11,271 nt of DNA from Bacteroidetes bacterium QH_10_64_19 (GTDB lineage: Bacteria > Bacteroidota > Rhodothermia > Rhodothermales > Salinibacteraceae). Position numbers and translations under genes: made by a program. Where the stretch lies: assembly GCA_003023125.1 (NCBI GenBank), contig PXSY01000212.1, positions 1 through 11,271 of the forward strand, given 5' to 3'. Shown piece by piece: positions 2 through 11,128 of this stretch. Below the pieces are notes generated by a model. It was not told the DNA's origin. It saw only the letters and a list, made by a program, of their open reading frames with translations, and ran no database searches. Every line of letters begins with the position of its first letter. Position 1 is the stretch's first letter.

Positions 2-725
2 GCGTTCACCCGCACGGCCGACGGGCGCTATGTGCTGGCCGCCGAACTGGTCGTGCAGGCAAAAACAATGAACCGGCCCGACTTTCGGTACGGCGATTAT
101 CGCGTGTGGGGCGATGTCGATTGGTCGCGGTATTCCCGGGACGAAAGAGCCCCCAGCGTCGAACAGATCGTCCGGTCGCTGTCGATCCGTGCGGAGGCGC
201 GGGTGCTCGGGCGATCCTTTCAGGGGCACGCCGCCGTCCGCCAAATTACGGAAGAGGACCATCAGGTGCTCCGCGAGGCCGCCCGCGATTCCGCTGGAGC
301 CCTGGGCTCGGATTCTGCCCGAGGAAAAGCTGGAAGCGGCGCTCATTATGGACGATCGCTCAGCCGTGGAGGAGCTCGTTCGGGATGAGAGTCCGGGGGT
401 CGCAGAAGAGCGAAAACAGTATTTGTACGAGGAAGCCCCCCGCCGCAATCCGGATCTCGTGGACCGTCTCCAGCACCTGTACGACGGACACTGCCAGGTC
501 TGCCGGTGGAATCCGGTTGACGAGTACGGCGAACCGCTCTGCGAGGGCCACCACATTCAGTGGTTAAGCCGCGGGGGGGACGATGCGCTCGACAACCTGA
601 TGCTCGTATGCCCCAACCATCACCGGGCCATCCACCGGTGCGACGCACCGCTCGACTGGGGCGACATGGCCTACGATTTCGGCGGCCACCGGGAGGCCGT
701 GGCCGCGGATCGGCACTTGGTGTGA
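2..725 (+). pseudogene. HNH endonuclease, 5'-truncated by the window and frameshifted
   Basis: A nuclease-type gene read in two frames. The first part (from base 2) is open and protein-like through residues such as AELVVQAKTMNRPDFRYGDY and RSFQGHAAVRQITEEDHQVL. From about 270-305 the sensible reading moves to the next frame (+1), continuing with ILPEEKLEAALIMDD to the stop at 723-725. The C-terminal part is a classic HNH/zinc-finger nuclease fold: CQVC (codons at 492 and 501), then CEGHHIQW with the catalytic His pair, an Asn (DNLMLVC) and the CPNHHRAIH end. HNH domains of this form cut DNA, often in restriction of modified or foreign DNA. The N-terminal half could be a PUA/EVE-like modified-base reader, but that is only inference. 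The true start lies outside the window. The shift may be a real inactivating indel or a sequencing error; no slippery heptamer suggests programmed shifting. HNH identity is fairly sure, pseudogene status less so. Confidence 0.7.
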
Positions 726-3987: not shown

Positions 3988-6882
3988 ATGTCACTTCTTC
4001 CGTCGAGTCGATGGGCTCAGGTTCTGCTGGGCGTCCTCGGAATTGTCCTCACCGTCCTGCTTGTCACCCCAGAGCTCGTGATCGAGTATTTCTGGCTGGG
4101 GGAGCTCGGTTACTCGGGCGTCTTCTGGACGATTCGGGGGACTCAGGTGCTGCTCTTTGTCCTGGTGTTTGCCGTGGCCGCCCTGTACTTCGGCGGCAAC
4201 TTTCATCTGCTCGTAGGCAATATTCCGCCCCTGTGGGCCTCGCAGTGGGCCCAAGAAGGAGAGGCGCCCGAGGTGGGGGGCAAACCGCTCACGCGAGGAC
4301 GGCTCCGGCGGTTGTCCTACGTCGTGGCGGGGGTGCTCAGCCTCCTGTTTGCCGCGGGATTTTCCGGACGGTGGAATGAGTTGCTCCGCTTCTGGTACGC
4401 GGGGGAATATGGCCAGGCCGATCCCATCTACGGGGTCGACCTGGGCTTCCACATGCTAGAGCTTCCCTTTCTGCAGGCACTTCAGAGCGGCATCGTCGGG
4501 CTGGCGTTCCTCGGCCTGCTGGCGCTCGTCACCGGGTACGTCATCGCCGGTCAGATCGGCGTGCAGGACGGTGGCTTCGAGGCCGATGCGGGTGCCCTCC
4601 GGCATCTTGGGGCCAACGTGGTCTTCCTGTTGCTGGGATGGGCGTGGGGCTTCTATCTTGACCTGTACGAACTGCTGCAAGAGGGAGGGGGCGCCGTGTA
4701 CGGCGCAGGCTACACGGACGTCAACGTCATGATTCCGGCCCTTTACGTAATGGTCGCGGCGACGCTCGTGCTCGCCGGGCTGGTGGGACTGAACCTGTAT
4801 CAACGGCGGCTCCGGCTCCTGGGCATCGGCGGGGCGGGGTACGTCGTCTTGCTGGTGGGCGGGCTTGTCCTGGCGCCGTCCCTCGTCACGCAGCTGACGG
4901 TCCTGCCCAGCGAATTGCAGGTGGAGCGTCCGTACCTGGAGAATAATATCAACATGACCCGCGAGGCGTACGCGCTCGAGGACTTCAAGGAGCGGTCGTA
5001 CCCGGCCCAGCCGGACCTTCCGGCGGATGCCGTGGAGAAAAACGAGGAAACCATCGACAACGTGCGGCTCTGGGATCCTCGTCTCCTCATCGACACCTAC
5101 CGGCAGCTTCAAGAGATTCGTCTCTACTACGAGTTTTACAGCGTGGATGTCGACCGCTACATGCTTGACGGCGATTACCGGCAGGTGATGGTGTCGCCCC
5201 GGGAACTCACCCAGCAGCTTCCGGAGGACACGTGGGACAACCGGCACGTCCGCTTCACACACGGGTACGGCTCGGTGTCCAACCTCGTGGCGCGGGAGGG
5301 ATCGGAAGGGAGTCCGGAGTTTCTCACGAAGGACATTCCGCCGCAGTCCGAATACGAGTCCCTCGACGTGGACAACCCAGCGCTCTATTACGGAGAGAAT
5401 ACGCCCCACTACCGCGTTGTGCCGGCGGGCGTTCCGGGAGACTCACTGGAGTTGGACTATCCTCGCTCCGGCGAAAACAAGTACACTCGGTACGACGGAG
5501 AGGGAGGCGTGGCTGTGGGAAGCTTCTGGAAGCAACTGCTCTTCTCGTACTACATGGGCGACTTCAATATTCTCCTCACCGACTATGTCCGGGACGACAG
5601 TCAAATTCAGTTCTGGAACCAGGTGGAAGAGCGGGTGCGTCGCGTCGCGCCCTTCCTGAAGCTCGACAAAGATCCCTATCTGGTCCACGGCGACGACCGT
5701 CACTACTGGATTGCGGACGCCTACACGACCAGCGAGTCGTTCCCGTACTCCGAGCCCATTCGGGGCCAGCGAGGATACGAGGGCACGCGCTACATCCGAA
5801 ATTCCGTGAAGGTCGTGGTCGATTCCTACAGTGGAGACGTGTCCCTGTACGTGTCGAACCCGGAAGATCCGATCATCCAGACGTACGAACGGATCTTCCC
5901 GGACCTCTTTCAACCGCTCGACGCCATGCCGGAGCTGCTACAGGACCACATCCGGTACCCACAGGACATCTTCGAAATCCAGATGGAGCGGTACCGTCGC
6001 TACCACCAGACGCAGCCACAGGTCTTCTACAACAACGAGGACCTCTGGACGCGGCCGCAGGAGCAGTACGCGGGCCGGCAGCGGCAGATGGAACCGTATT
6101 ACATTCTCACGGATCTGCCGGGACAGGACGATGCCGGACTGGAGTTCATGCTCATGATGCCCATGACGCCGGACGGGCGCGACAACATGATCGGTTGGGT
6201 GGCGGCCCGGTCCGATCCGCCCAACTACGGCGATGTCGTCGTCTACGAGCTGCCAAAGGACCGGCTCATTCGTGGGCCGAACCAGATTGAATCGCGGATC
6301 GATCAGGATACTGAGATTTCCCGGCAGCTTTCGCTCTGGGACCAGCGCGGGTCGAGTGTGATTCGCGGAAACGTCATTGTCGTCCCCATCGAGGACTCGT
6401 TCCTCTACGTGGAGCCAATCTTCCTGATTGCCGATGAGATCCAGATTCCGGAGATGCAGCGCGTGATCGCGGCGACCGATCAGGGGGTGGCCATGGAACG
6501 AACCCTGCGCCAGTCGCTCAACAGCGTGCTGGGGGAGCAGGTGGTGGAGACACGCGACCAGGCCCTAGCGCAGATGGAGCAGGCGGCCGACGCGGCGCAG
6601 GCCGCTGCCGCCCCGGAGCAGGTGGAAGGGCTGGAGCGGGCGAAGGAGCTGATTCAGGAGGCCCGCCAGGCCCTTCAAGACGGCGACTTTGCCACCTTTG
6701 GGGAGCGATTCGACGAACTGGAGCAGGCGCTCAACGACGTGCCCCTTCCCGATACGACGCAGGCCGTACCGCCCACCCCCACGTCCGACGCCATGCCGGA
6801 GACAAGTGGGGGAGCTAAAAAGGGAATCTCAACCTGCGACCTGGACCTGTGCGGGCCTGAGCTTAGCGCTTCTGGATCATAA
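3988..6882 (+). CDS. UPF0182 (COG1615) family large integral membrane protein
   Basis: 964 residues, within the usual size of UPF0182 proteins, a family of unknown function found in Actinobacteria, Cyanobacteria and some others. Seven hydrophobic segments fit the family: about 10-30, 51-68, 109-125, 168-190, 208-228, 247-270 and 278-300. A long extracytoplasmic domain follows, with the family-like blocks DPYLVHGDDRHYWIADAYTT (about 560-580), SVKVVVDSYSGDVSLYVSNP (about 605-625) and LLQDHIRYPQDIFEIQMERY (about 649-668). Residues about 855-920 are Ala/Gln/Glu-rich helix, likely coiled coil (ERAKELIQEARQALQDGDF). The end is a Pro/Thr linker and a short Cys-containing tail (STCDLDLCGPELSASGS) that overlaps the opposite gene by 20 bp and may be a late extension. 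Start: the ATG at 3988 precedes the first helix directly; no Shine-Dalgarno is visible. It stands alone, with no operon partner. Family assignment is firm; role unknown. Confidence 0.93.
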   Translation: MSLLPSSRWAQVLLGVLGIVLTVLLVTPELVIEYFWLGELGYSGVFWTIRGTQVLLFVLVFAVAALYFGGNFHLLVGNIPPLWASQWAQEGEAPEVGGKPLTRGRLRRLSYVVAGVLSLLFAAGFSGRWNELLRFWYAGEYGQADPIYGVDLGFHMLELPFLQALQSGIVGLAFLGLLALVTGYVIAGQIGVQDGGFEADAGALRHLGANVVFLLLGWAWGFYLDLYELLQEGGGAVYGAGYTDVNVMIPALYVMVAATLVLAGLVGLNLYQRRLRLLGIGGAGYVVLLVGGLVLAPSLVTQLTVLPSELQVERPYLENNINMTREAYALEDFKERSYPAQPDLPADAVEKNEETIDNVRLWDPRLLIDTYRQLQEIRLYYEFYSVDVDRYMLDGDYRQVMVSPRELTQQLPEDTWDNRHVRFTHGYGSVSNLVAREGSEGSPEFLTKDIPPQSEYESLDVDNPALYYGENTPHYRVVPAGVPGDSLELDYPRSGENKYTRYDGEGGVAVGSFWKQLLFSYYMGDFNILLTDYVRDDSQIQFWNQVEERVRRVAPFLKLDKDPYLVHGDDRHYWIADAYTTSESFPYSEPIRGQRGYEGTRYIRNSVKVVVDSYSGDVSLYVSNPEDPIIQTYERIFPDLFQPLDAMPELLQDHIRYPQDIFEIQMERYRRYHQTQPQVFYNNEDLWTRPQEQYAGRQRQMEPYYILTDLPGQDDAGLEFMLMMPMTPDGRDNMIGWVAARSDPPNYGDVVVYELPKDRLIRGPNQIESRIDQDTEISRQLSLWDQRGSSVIRGNVIVVPIEDSFLYVEPIFLIADEIQIPEMQRVIAATDQGVAMERTLRQSLNSVLGEQVVETRDQALAQMEQAADAAQAAAAPEQVEGLERAKELIQEARQALQDGDFATFGERFDELEQALNDVPLPDTTQAVPPTPTSDAMPETSGGAKKGISTCDLDLCGPELSASGS

Positions 6883-7252
6883 TCCAGTTGTTGCCTGCCT
6901 CGTCGCGGTACAGTCGCACATCCACCAGGGTGGGGCGCATCTTGTAGGTGAACGTATACGTGAAGTACTCGTCGAGCTCGCCCTGGTCGACCCCCTCCTT
7001 GAAGCGTCCCCAGAACAGCGGATTATTGCTACAAGGAGCCAGTTCGGTGAAAAAGTTTGTGTCTCGGGCCTCCTCGGGAGGGACGCCGCTCAGGTTTGAT
7101 TCGTAGCGGTTATAAAATTGCACGGTGCCCTCGTCGTCGAACGCGAGATCCGTCGCCGGCTCCTTCCCCTCGGGCGAAGGATCTTCTGGGGGCTGATCCG
7201 CGTCGGGCTCCTCCCCTTGCAGATACGAATACGGATTCTGGGAAGACGGCAT
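6863..7252 (-). CDS. pyp: photoactive yellow protein (PYP), blue-light photoreceptor
   Basis: 129 residues. PYP is a small cytosolic PAS-fold photoreceptor that binds p-coumaric acid by a thioester to one cysteine and cycles on blue light. Alignment by eye to the Halorhodospira halophila protein has a constant +5 offset with no gaps from its residue 42 to 100. Key residues are kept: Y47 (Tyr42), E51 (Glu46), P73 and the chromophore cysteine C74 (Pro68-Cys69, in ELAPCSNNPLFWGRFKEGV), F101 and M105 (Phe96, Met100, in TYTFTYKMRPT). Changes at the pocket are S55 for Thr50 and V57 for Arg52. The N-terminal about 35 residues are Pro/Glu/Asp-rich rather than the usual helical N-cap. PYP is known in Salinibacter. 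No tyrosine ammonia-lyase or p-coumaroyl-CoA ligase gene is near, so the chromophore supply must be elsewhere. It converges with and overlaps the UPF0182 gene; no Shine-Dalgarno is seen before the ATG at 7252. Confidence 0.96.
   Translation of the reverse strand: MPSSQNPYSYLQGEEPDADQPPEDPSPEGKEPATDLAFDDEGTVQFYNRYESNLSGVPPEEARDTNFFTELAPCSNNPLFWGRFKEGVDQGELDEYFTYTFTYKMRPTLVDVRLYRDEAGNNWIMIQKR
6872..6887 (+). terminator. weak stem-loop spanning the UPF0182 stop codon
   Basis: CTGGAT (6872-6877) and ATCCAG (6882-6887) pair around a CATA loop; the UPF0182 stop TAA is at 6880-6882. On the plus strand TTGTTG follows. It lies inside the 3' end of the PYP coding sequence, so any termination role is tentative, but it is the only stem I see for this convergent pair. 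Confidence 0.25.
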
Positions 7253-7925
7253 AAGGAACAGGCGCAGCGTCCGAGAAAGCAGTGGGGGAAGGCATGCAGC
7301 CGCCCGCTGGGGGTGCTGCGATTCAGAAGCAGGGGGGCTCTCGTGATGAAGCGAGACCGGTGGGTTCAGCGAGGGGAACCCTGATTGGGGCGCATTTCAA
7401 GTCCTTGATCGGTGATCTTCGTCGGCCTCCGGCGTGGCCCCAGGCCGGATGAACCGCTGTCTCTCGCCGACCGACGGCGGCCCACTGCGCTGGGAGCGAA
7501 GTGCAGGAGGCAAGGACCCGGATCAGCGTACTCCGAGTCGTCTCCGGAGGGTCGCTGCTTCCAGCGAGGCCCCTGCTGTCCGGCGAATTTACGCAATGAG
7601 GTCGGGCATAGGATCGCCGTCGACGACGCATCGAATGCGGGTTGGGCCAACGTGCATTGTTGGGCACTTGGGAGGCAACCAGGGTTCTGTGTTGTATTTG
7701 TCGTCTCAGGCATCGGTCCTCCCGAGCGAAATGACCCCGTCTTGTTTCCCACGTGGTGCTTCGGAATGCGGATGTAACCAAGTCGCTATGAACCTACGTG
7801 CGTGTTCGCGAGAAGAACCCTCGCCTTACTCTTCCGATAGGACCCAAACCTATGAAACAGGTGGCACTTTGTGAACACGTCACCCGGAAAAAGCGACGTT
7901 CGGCCTTGGACTGAACCATAGACGG
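7253..7925. other. longest non-coding stretch, about 670 bp, divergent promoter region
   Basis: It lies between the leftward PYP gene and the next rightward gene, so promoters for both must be here; none can be assigned with confidence. Several frames stay open for over 100 codons, but their translations are Arg/Ser/Pro-rich with no domain pattern, typical of non-coding high-GC DNA. Short stems are present: TCGCTG (7552-7557) with CAGCGA (7562-7567) and a CTTC loop, CTCCG/CGGAG around 7531-7549, and CACT-CGCT/AGCG-AGTG around 7482-7503. These could belong to an untranslated leader or a small RNA, but I recognise no known RNA family. Confidence 0.45.
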
Positions 7926-8369
7926 ATGAAGCAAGAGACAGAGACACCAGCGGACGCCGACTCAACGACCGAGGCCCTCCGTACTCGCATCGAAGCGGCC
8001 CTTCAGGAGTCTCTTGAGAGGCAGTGGGAGGAGGTTCTGGATCAATGGGCGGGGGCCGAGGCTGCCGATCGGGAAGCGGTCTGGACCTATGCCGCGAACC
8101 TCCGCGACCGAATCCTCAATGCGCTTCTCGCGGCTGACTCGCACGAGGCCCTCAAGCGATGCCTTGCGGTTGGGTACGTTGAGATGAAGTGTCACTGGAC
8201 GATGCTCAACACACAGATCCAGCATCAGACGTCCCGAAACGGGCGGCCCGAAGAGCCCCTCATCTACCGGGCCACCTGCGTGAGCCTCATCGTTCAAGCT
8301 CTTGAACCGCTCCTCAACCGCGAGTACGTAGAGGGACTCACCGACTTCTTGGCCGAGTCGCTCGCTTAG
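7926..8369 (+). CDS. soluble helical protein of unknown function
   Basis: 147 residues, not recognised. It is predicted to be soluble and nearly all helical, with no membrane segment or signal peptide. The N-terminal about 16 residues are acidic and disordered (MKQETETPADADSTT). Helices follow at about 17-45 (RIEAALQESLERQWEEVLDQ), 48-70, 72-103 and 110-147. Two cysteines, C79 and C89, and a third, C118, are scattered without a metal-binding spacing. Aromatic/acidic composition fits a cytosolic halophile protein. The start at 7926 gives a natural acidic N-terminus and is preceded by GACGG, a weak Shine-Dalgarno. Reading frame, length and composition are gene-like, and no overlapping frame competes. 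It is separated from the next gene by 224 bp with its own promoter, so no operon is implied. Confidence 0.72.
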   Translation: MKQETETPADADSTTEALRTRIEAALQESLERQWEEVLDQWAGAEAADREAVWTYAANLRDRILNALLAADSHEALKRCLAVGYVEMKCHWTMLNTQIQHQTSRNGRPEEPLIYRATCVSLIVQALEPLLNREYVEGLTDFLAESLA

Positions 8370-9406: not shown

Positions 9407-11128
9407 CTACTGTGCACTTGCCATCTCTGCGGCCCGCTGGAGGGCGGACTTCGCATTTACGACGGCGCCGGTTTTCGAGAGCGCGCCGAAGCGCGCCGTC
9501 GCTGTGCCGCCGGGGCGGGTGACCTGTCGATCGCGGTAGCGCGTGGCGGTGTCGAGGATGACCGAGCGGACCTCGGTGGCGCTCAGCGACGGGTAGTGGG
9601 CCATGATGAGAGCGGCCAGTCCACTCACCATGGGCGCCGCCATACTGGTGCCGTCGTTGCGCTCGTATTGGTCGTCCGGGACTGTGGAATAGATGGAGTG
9701 GCCCGGGGCAAACACGTCCACCCGATCGGCCCCGTAGTTGCTAAACGGAGCGGCGAGTTGCTTGCCGCCCTTCCAGGACGAGGCCCCCACCTCGATCCAT
9801 CGCTGCGCCCGCCCGTTCTCCTCATAGGAGGGAGAGGGATAGTTGTCGGTCGAGTCCACATTTTCGCCGTCGTTGCCGGCGGCGTGCACCATGAGCACGC
9901 CCATCGAGTCGGCGTGCCGAACGGCTGCGTCGACGACCTCTTTGTGGGGGGAGTAGGACTTGCCGAAGCTCATGTTGATGACGTCGGCCCCATTCTCGAC
10001 GGCGTAGCGGATGGCGTTGGCCACGTCCTTGTCGCGCTCGTCCCCATTGGGGACCGTACGGATCGGCATGAGACGGACGCCCCGAGCAATGCCATCGGTG
10101 CCGAGGTCGTTTTGGCGCGTGGCCCCAATGATCCCCGCTACGTGCGTGCCGTGAGTGGCATCAGGGCCTTCCACGTCATTGTTGCCGTACTGCCGCTCAG
10201 TCTTGTCCGTGTAGTTGTCCCCCACGATGGGGCGCGGGTCGAAGTCCGGGTTGTAGTTGTACTCGACCTGTCGTTCGAGCTGGTCTTTGTATTCACGGAG
10301 GTCTTCGGGGGAAAGGCCCTGGTCGTAGAAGTAGCGGAGGGTTTTCTGGGCCCGCTGCACGGTCCGCTGGGGGCTCGACACGGAGCGAACGGTTTCCGCG
10401 GTGAGGGTGTCGGTCTCAAGGTGCTTCTTTAGAATCTGTGCGGAATTCTGAACAGCGGTCTGTGCCTTTTCGACCCGGGCGAGACGCTGCTCGGCCTGCT
10501 TGCGCTTTTTCTGAAAGGTCTGCTTGAGTTCGCGGTACCGCCGGTAGGCTTCCCGGTCGGTCGACGCGACGTCGGCCGAGTCGGCATCGGCGAAGCGCTT
10601 GCGCAGGTCTGTGTAGAGCCGCGTGAGTTCGTACGTGTCCTGATTGACGTGTTCGCCGTCGGGGCCTCCGATGAAGTTCCACCCGTGCACGTCATCGACG
10701 TAGCCGTTGCCGTCGTCGTCCACGCCGTTGCCCGGCACCTCGTCGGCATTCGTCCAGGTCTCTGCCGCCAGGTCTTCGTGCTCGATGTCGATGCCCGAGT
10801 CGATGATGGCGACGCGGACTGTGTCTCGAGGGTCACGATCCTGCAGCACGGTTCGGTAGGCGGCCTCGGTGTTGAGGCCGGGGCCGCTGCGCGGCACGCG
10901 GTCGCGGTGATACCAGTCCTGCGGAGCGCGGGAGGGGGCGGGGGGCACGGACTCCTCGGGCTCCGCCGTCTCGTCGTCGGTCGAAGAGGACTCTGTTTGG
11001 GAAGCCTCCGGCGGGGACGACGCCGTGGTGGTATCGGGACTCGTCGGGGTCGTGGCCGGCTGACTTCCGGAGCAGCCGACCAGGAGAAGAGCGACGAGCA
11101 GCGTGAAACGGGTCGTGGCTCGCTTCAT
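9407..11128 (-). CDS. S8 (subtilisin-like) serine peptidase, lipoprotein
   Basis: 573 residues. A lipoprotein signal (basic MKRATTR, hydrophobic core, lipobox LVGC with C19) anchors it to a membrane outside the cytoplasm. A Ser/Thr/Pro/Glu-rich linker runs from 20 to about 70. The catalytic triad is intact: D110 (VAIIDSGID), H326 (HGTHVAGIIG), S495 (GTSMAAPMVSG), with oxyanion N419 (HAAGNDG). Between Asp and His lies an insert of about 150 residues. It opens with an Asp-rich loop, GVDDDGNGYVDD (135-146), likely calcium-binding and known in related subtilases. It then forms long charged helices (about 165-290, for example RRYRELKQTFQKKRKQAEQR), probably coiled coil. There is no inhibitor-type propeptide obvious. 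The role is probably extracellular protein turnover or maturation; the substrate is unknown. The ATG at 11128 gives the correct lipoprotein signal. A 50-bp gap to the upstream gene suggests cotranscription. Confidence 0.94.
   Translation of the reverse strand: MKRATTRFTLLVALLLVGCSGSQPATTPTSPDTTTASSPPEASQTESSSTDDETAEPEESVPPAPSRAPQDWYHRDRVPRSGPGLNTEAAYRTVLQDRDPRDTVRVAIIDSGIDIEHEDLAAETWTNADEVPGNGVDDDGNGYVDDVHGWNFIGGPDGEHVNQDTYELTRLYTDLRKRFADADSADVASTDREAYRRYRELKQTFQKKRKQAEQRLARVEKAQTAVQNSAQILKKHLETDTLTAETVRSVSSPQRTVQRAQKTLRYFYDQGLSPEDLREYKDQLERQVEYNYNPDFDPRPIVGDNYTDKTERQYGNNDVEGPDATHGTHVAGIIGATRQNDLGTDGIARGVRLMPIRTVPNGDERDKDVANAIRYAVENGADVINMSFGKSYSPHKEVVDAAVRHADSMGVLMVHAAGNDGENVDSTDNYPSPSYEENGRAQRWIEVGASSWKGGKQLAAPFSNYGADRVDVFAPGHSIYSTVPDDQYERNDGTSMAAPMVSGLAALIMAHYPSLSATEVRSVILDTATRYRDRQVTRPGGTATARFGALSKTGAVVNAKSALQRAAEMASAQ

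What the first reader, a model, noticed from the sequence alone, without database searches (positions are those of the whole stretch)
6863..7252. Orphan photoactive yellow protein with altered N-cap and pocket
Tyr42, Glu46, Pro68, Cys69, Phe96 and Met100 equivalents are all present, so chromophore binding and photocycle are expected. However, the N-terminal cap is replaced by an acidic Pro-rich segment, and Arg52 and Thr50 are Val and Ser. In the model PYP the cap and Arg52 affect photocycle recovery, so kinetics may differ. No signalling partner or chromophore genes are adjacent. PYP itself is known in Salinibacter; the cap and pocket changes are the points to check.
Basis: partly seen in the sequence, partly recalled or inferred. 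Interest (0 to 1): 0.7.

Follow-up and report, generated by a model that had tools for sequence, protein, structure and literature searches.

The report
Light sensor gene missing its front
The gene is an ordinary salt-lake bacterial blue-light sensor (photoactive yellow protein) that appears to have lost an 81-base internal piece between two short repeats, removing its end cap and the first strand of its core, so it is probably a damaged copy rather than a new kind of sensor.

Summary
The ORF is real (minus strand, 7252-6863, 129 aa) and is a Salinibacter-type photoactive yellow protein (PYP), 92% identical to P0002 over aligned residues, in a gene order shared with 7 of 13 genomes of the genus. 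The named pocket residues are right. The main reading is not: the N-cap is not replaced by an acidic segment. In 16 of 17 aligned relatives that extension precedes a normal cap. The window copy lacks 27 residues (H. halophila 7-33: both cap helices and PAS strand A), an 81-bp in-frame deletion whose ends lie on direct repeats seen in relatives (13 of 14 bases in G010/G011, 10 of 14 in the others tested). Of 120 listed homologues (302 hits) only the window shows it. AlphaFold2 gives P0002 a full PAS fold (pLDDT 78) but the window protein neither strand A nor B (56.5). Ser50 and Val52 are the lineage norm; S. ruber PYP (432 nm, about 1 h, Ser50) is already characterised. Most likely a crippled or dead allele; an artefact or a functional capless PYP remain possible. 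No reads or own genome were available.

The parts
6863..7252 (-). pyp ORF, 129 aa, Salinibacter-type photoactive yellow protein with an internal 27-residue deletion
7139..7252 (-). residues 1-38: acidic Pro-rich N-terminal extension (MPSSQNPYSYLQ...) ending in the cap-start motif AF (H. halophila Ala5-Phe6); normal for the lineage
   Evidence: alignments A1 and A5; the exact place of the gap is ambiguous within the repeat (A1 sets it one residue later)
7128..7138 (-). deletion junction: the single remaining copy of the direct repeat GACGACGAGGG; 81 bp (H. halophila residues 7-33: cap helices and strand A) are missing here relative to orthologues
6866..7138 (-). residues 39-129: PYP core from the Asp34 equivalent to the C terminus (strand B onward)
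7031..7033 (-). Cys74 codon = Cys69, chromophore attachment site

Best explanation
The window carries the Salinibacter pyp orthologue after an 81-bp in-frame deletion by slippage or recombination between two direct repeats 81 bp apart (at the codons for F-D-D-E at the start of the cap and I-D-D-E/A at the end of strand A). The product keeps the lineage's acidic N-extension and the pocket residues from strand B onward, but joins H. halophila-equivalent residue 6 directly to residue 34. Without both cap helices and PAS strand A (which carries pocket residue Ile31) it most probably cannot form the stable dark state, so this allele is most likely a loss-of-function or strongly destabilised PYP. 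Shown: the deletion relative to the relatives examined, repeats at its ends in relatives, an intact downstream core. Inferred: the mechanism of deletion, that it is present in the organism, and that function is lost.
For: The 27-aa gap is in the window alone: 16 of the 17 relatives in A1 have the missing stretch, the other (P0041, 92 aa) starts after it; of 120 listed homologues (of 302 hits) 118 keep the Phe28-Gly29 motif of strand A (117 by script, P0108 by eye), the other two are P0041 and the window. All 18 distinct pyp genes, from 15 genomes, printed keep it (three further hits, L025-L027, were not printed by that script). Orthology: pyp stands between the 147-aa gene and UPF0182 in 7 of 13 genomes (G001-G004, G007, G010, G011). 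Repeats: in L015/L016 (G011/G010) the best 14-bp direct-repeat pair of the gene (13 of 14; 62,550 pairs) is the one bounding the deletion, spacing 81; in L015, 1 of 7,668 in-frame start/spacing combinations does as well; the repeat finder lists the same pair in L055 as 21-23 nt at 78-81% identity. Structure: P0002 model pLDDT 78.0, pTM 0.68, cap helices 43-49 and 52-57, five strands 61-65, 70-74, 121-130, 133-143, 149-155; window model pLDDT 56.5, pTM 0.43, only the last three strands. TIGR02373 is matched from profile position 4 in three intact relatives, from 30 in the window; PF00989 PAS scores 22.7-27.2 bits in those three, 15.4 in the window. Leu15, Asp24, Leu26, Phe28, Gly29, Ile31, all lost, are reported as over 70% conserved, and Phe28/Gly29 as unlikely to be used for tuning (PMC12826048 section 5). 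Engineered delta25 PYP has a less stable dark state and some shortened variants unfold without light (PMC4214557, passages).
Against: The frame is open and the core is nearly identical to P0002, with no further decay. The junction puts Leu and Phe at the Ile31 and Leu33 positions, which might rebuild a strand. AlphaFold2 was run on an alignment in which the missing columns are insertions, so it is not a fair test of a rebuilt strand. In the five other loci tested (L001, L002, L004, L009, L017; L002 and L009 are the same gene) the repeat is only 10 of 14, reached by 46-88 of 7,668-7,881 combinations; one of them, L017 (G007), is as close by UPF0182 (90%) as G010 and G011. The window's cluster has one member on one contig: the deletion is unreplicated.
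Confidence: 0.62

Rival explanations
1. Functional capless PYP: the deletion slides the extension's T-D-L-A-F segment into the place of strand A (G-I-I-K-I in P0002), giving a natural PYP without cap helices, similar in spirit to engineered delta25 PYP or nanoFAST, with a long-lived or constitutive signalling state.
For: Leu and Phe fall on positions 31 and 33, Asp34 onward is intact; TIGR02373 extends its match to residue 36, over L-A-F; the frame is kept and the pocket residues from Tyr42 on are present. Engineered PYPs lacking 25-26 N-terminal residues still cycle or bind a ligand (PMC4214557 passages; PMC8132994 passages).
Against: Position 30 becomes Asp, and Phe28-Gly29 are lost; a profile of 111 intact cores aligns the window only from position 33. 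No strand is predicted there (block pLDDT 32-43). delta25 and nanoFAST begin before strand A (residues 26-27), so they are not equivalents. No second allele of this kind among the 120 listed homologues.
Confidence: 0.17
2. Artefact: the 81 bp were lost during amplification, library preparation or assembly at the short repeat, and the organism has a normal PYP of about 156 aa.
For: Only one sequence on one contig shows it; the ends lie on a short direct repeat, where template switching also occurs (general knowledge); the neighbouring UPF0182 ORF reads past the place where relatives' matches end, a second local oddity.
Against: A repeat of about 10-13 bp is too short to collapse in usual assemblies (general knowledge); UPF0182, TerC, subtilase and methyltransferase ORFs of the window have near-full Pfam domain matches; no marked GC change at the junction (0.59-0.61 in the windows over 6900-7349).
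Confidence: 0.19
3. One reading: a working orphan PYP whose cap has been replaced by an acidic Pro-rich segment, with unusual pocket tuning by Ser50 and Val52.
For: Pocket residues present; no partner genes among the window ORFs scanned.
Against: The acidic segment precedes a normal cap in relatives; Ser50/Val52 are the lineage norm and Ser50 is described for S. ruber.
Confidence: 0.02

Closest known systems
Salinibacter ruber PYP (Q2S0F2; Memmi et al. 2008, Mix et al. 2021: both seen only as references in PMC12826048, not read)
   Same: Same lineage by the named relatives (S. altiplanensis L004; several Salinibacter sp.); Ser50. Reported 432 nm, about 1 h recovery (passage).
   Different: The intact relatives examined (for example L004 and L055, 156 aa each) have cap and strand A, which the window lacks. 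The S. ruber sequence itself was not fetched; that it has a 31-residue N-extension without effect on kinetics, and no flanking biosynthesis genes, is recalled from the 2008 abstract, from no call.
H. halophila delta25 PYP (PDB 1XFQ)
   Same: N-cap missing; pocket residues from Tyr42 on retained.
   Different: delta25 is an engineered N-terminal truncation that starts at residue 26, before strand A; the window lacks 7-33 and carries its lineage's extension in front.
nanoFAST (PMC8132994, passages)
   Same: PYP-derived domain without the N-terminal helices that still binds a small ligand.
   Different: Engineered, 26 residues cut; the passage reports the five-stranded sheet for apo FAST, and that nanoFAST keeps it is inferred; it works with a synthetic fluorogen.

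Membership tests
Photoactive yellow protein (PYP) family | Cys69 (used to define the family in PMC9664959, passages), with Tyr42 and Glu46 conserved | tested here: met
   Cys74, Tyr47, Glu51
Photoactive yellow protein (PYP) family | Match to TIGR02373 over its curated cut-off | tested here: not met
   86 bits vs 143.05; but three intact relatives miss it too (99.9-110.8 bits), so the cut-off does not decide membership; profile positions 4-29 are unmatched in the window only
Photoactive yellow protein (PYP) family | Complete PAS core of five strands including strand A (Phe28-Leu33 region) | tested here: not met
   Absent from sequence and from the model (model not a fair test of a replaced strand)
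Photoactive yellow protein (PYP) family | N-terminal cap of two helices | tested here: not met
   Only the Ala5-Phe6 equivalents remain
Photoactive yellow protein (PYP) family | Covalent p-coumaric acid and a photocycle | not testable with these tools
   Needs spectroscopy
Salinibacter single-domain pyp (orthologue) | Same gene neighbourhood and closest sequence | tested here: met
   pyp between the 147-aa gene and UPF0182 in 7 of 13 genomes of the genus of G004; in the other 6 the 147-aa gene is 3-4 kb from a pyp copy (4) or on another contig (2) and UPF0182 is elsewhere

The most novel reading that the evidence does not exclude
A natural PYP that dispensed with both cap helices and its original A strand in one repeat-mediated step and re-formed the sheet with a strand from its acidic extension, giving a photoreceptor locked in or biased to the signalling state.
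Probability: 0.1. Interest if true: 0.55.

Novelty: new variant of a known kind. Interest (0 to 1): 0.25.

Why it matters
It corrects the finding: what looked like an evolved cap and pocket is a deletion allele of a known photoreceptor type. If real, it is a natural deletion mutant that would test whether PYP needs strand A and the cap, and it points to a repeat that can remove them in one step in this lineage. If it is an artefact, it warns against reading PYP diversity from single contigs.

Tried and rejected
Longer start: no in-frame ATG/GTG/TTG upstream. Own-genome search: no genome held. Viral carriage: no DNA in viral contigs matched the patterns made from P0002. Chromophore enzymes in the genus of G004 instead: PF00221 lyase over cut-off in 11 of 13 genomes, in two score classes (about 610 and about 450 bits). 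In 6 of 13 genomes (G008, G009, G012, G013, G014, G015) a 450-class lyase lies 1.7-2.9 kb from a pyp copy; in G010 and G011 it is on the same contig but more than a million bases away, in G007 on another contig; G004 and G002 show only the 610 class; G001 and G003 none (their genomes may be incomplete). TIGR02372 ligase: 0 of 13 over cut-off, and it rings below cut-off in 12 of 14 control genomes, so it is uninformative. NCBIfam could not tell tyrosine from histidine lyase for the three lyases scanned (all below cut-off). Foldseek comparison of the models was not possible. Memmi 2008 is not held. Paper searches for 'photoactive yellow protein' with 'pseudogene' (4 papers) and with 'N-terminal cap' (5 papers): no listed title or abstract start described a natural cap deletion (of these papers none was opened).

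Rows left out: A1 used the window and 17 of the other 119 listed proteins; A3 the window and 53; A4 53. 182 of the 302 hits were not listed and not seen. The core profile used 111 of the 118 intact proteins (7 did not fit the script's motif), so its invariant Phe28-Gly29-Ile30 is by selection.

Full report
What is there. The ORF lies on the minus strand, 7252 down to 6863, ATG start, 129 aa. It matches PYP by TIGR02373 (E 2e-24, below the model's cut-off) and PDB PYP chains (best 1gsv_A, E 2.7e-20).

A protein search returned 302 homologues, 120 listed. The window protein is its own cluster (one member, one contig); the next, P0002, is 156 aa and 92% identical over the aligned residues (A1; 76%, where the gap counts). 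In A1, 16 of 17 relatives have the same kind of acidic extension and then about 27 residues that the window lacks; P0041 (92 aa) starts after both. In H. halophila numbers the window joins Phe6 to Asp34 and lacks 7-33, which in the P0002 model are the helices 43-49 and 52-57 and the strand 61-65. Of the 120 listed, 118 keep the strand A motif, P0041 starts after it, and the window is the only one with an internal loss (motif test, P0108 by eye). All 18 distinct pyp genes from 15 genomes printed keep it; three further hits (L025-L027) were not printed by that script.

How it arose. In relatives two direct repeats 81 bp apart flank the missing part. In L015/L016, from G011 and G010, this pair is the best 14-bp direct repeat of the gene, 13 of 14 among 62,550 pairs (the same pair in L055), and in L015 1 of 7,668 in-frame start/spacing combinations reaches it. 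In L001, L002 (= L009), L004 and L017 the pair is 10 of 14, reached by 46-88 of 7,668-7,881 combinations, so support is weaker there. A slippage or recombination deletion is still the simplest cause; both repeats are in the same codon register, so the frame is kept.

Is it the orthologue? pyp stands between the 147-aa gene and UPF0182 in 7 of 13 genomes of the genus of G004. L004 (S. altiplanensis) also shares TerC (there apparently broken) and the methyltransferase; L001 (a MAG) shares TerC but has a hybrid-kinase-like ORF where the methyltransferase would be (kinase by eye). So the window pyp is the orthologue, not a paralogue of different build.

What it means for function. AlphaFold2 on a 53-row alignment gives P0002 a full PAS domain with cap (mean pLDDT 78.0, pTM 0.68). 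The window protein on a matching 54-row alignment gets 56.5 and 0.43, with the last three strands and helices 49-55 and 78-90 only; residues 31-70 lie at block means 32-53. The alignment treats the lost columns as insertions, so strand replacement was not fairly tested. Profile evidence agrees: TIGR02373 is matched from position 4 in three intact relatives but from 30 in the window; PF00989 falls from 22.7-27.2 bits to 15.4; a profile of 111 intact cores aligns the window from position 33. The 2025 family review lists Leu15, Asp24, Leu26, Phe28, Gly29, Ile31 among positions over 70% conserved, Ile31 as pocket residue, and calls Phe28 and Gly29 unlikely to be used for tuning (PMC12826048 section 5). 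Truncated H. halophila PYPs, which lose less than this, are already less stable in the dark state, though they keep a similar photocycle (PMC4214557 passages). I therefore think loss of function most likely; it is not shown.

The pocket. Ser50 and Val52 are ordinary here: position 50 Ser 109, Ala 10; position 52 Val 85, Ile 30, Phe 4, Arg 0, of 119 parsed among 120 listed homologues. The review gives S. ruber PYP as 432 nm with Ser50 and about 1 h recovery (passages and section 5).

Orphan status. No partner or chromophore gene was found among the window ORFs scanned. The review found TAL in 7 and pCL in 42 of 113 predicted pyp operons (section 8), so absence is common. In the genus of G004, 6 of 13 genomes have an aromatic lyase 1.7-2.9 kb from a pyp copy, with a ligase of the AMP-binding kind between them in the two loci examined (L054 by Pfam; L052 by NCBIfam). 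In G010 the lyase of that class is about 1.7 Mb from pyp. The lyases' substrate was not established.

Verdict. A known photoreceptor type with a repeat-bounded internal deletion, most likely a damaged allele; unreplicated, with artefact and functional capless PYP as live rivals.

Noticed in passing
window 3988-6882 (+), overlap 6863-6882: UPF0182 ORF (964 aa) reads past where relatives' best matches end (query residues 929-958 over 13 genomes, three of them with stops inside the match) and overlaps the pyp 3' end by 20 bp; in L001, L004 and L055 the two genes do not overlap.
   Followed up: partly
window 7926-8369 (+): 147-aa gene next to pyp and divergent from it, matched in 13 of 13 genomes of the genus of G004, within 0.7 kb of pyp in 7; no Pfam or NCBIfam match. 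A conserved family of unknown role.
   Followed up: partly
L054:3809-11049 and L052:3762-8999: pyp clusters in sister genomes: an upstream protein with a PYP-like PAS domain (TIGR02373 61 bits in L054; weak P0002 match in G008) and a coiled-coil look, then PYP, an AMP-binding ligase, an aromatic amino acid lyase and a DUF427 gene (Pfam in L054; DUF427 by eye in L052). The upstream protein is a candidate signalling partner.
   Followed up: partly
L004:4767-5252 (-): TerC-like ORF in S. altiplanensis looks truncated or frame-broken compared with the window's 277-aa TerC.
   Followed up: no
window 9407-11128 (-) and 114-725 (+): Beyond TerC the window has a subtilase where L004, L001 and L055 have an argH-like gene, and beyond the methyltransferase an HNH nuclease ORF where L004 has an SPFH-like gene: the conserved block is bounded by rearrangements (argH and SPFH by eye).
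   Followed up: no
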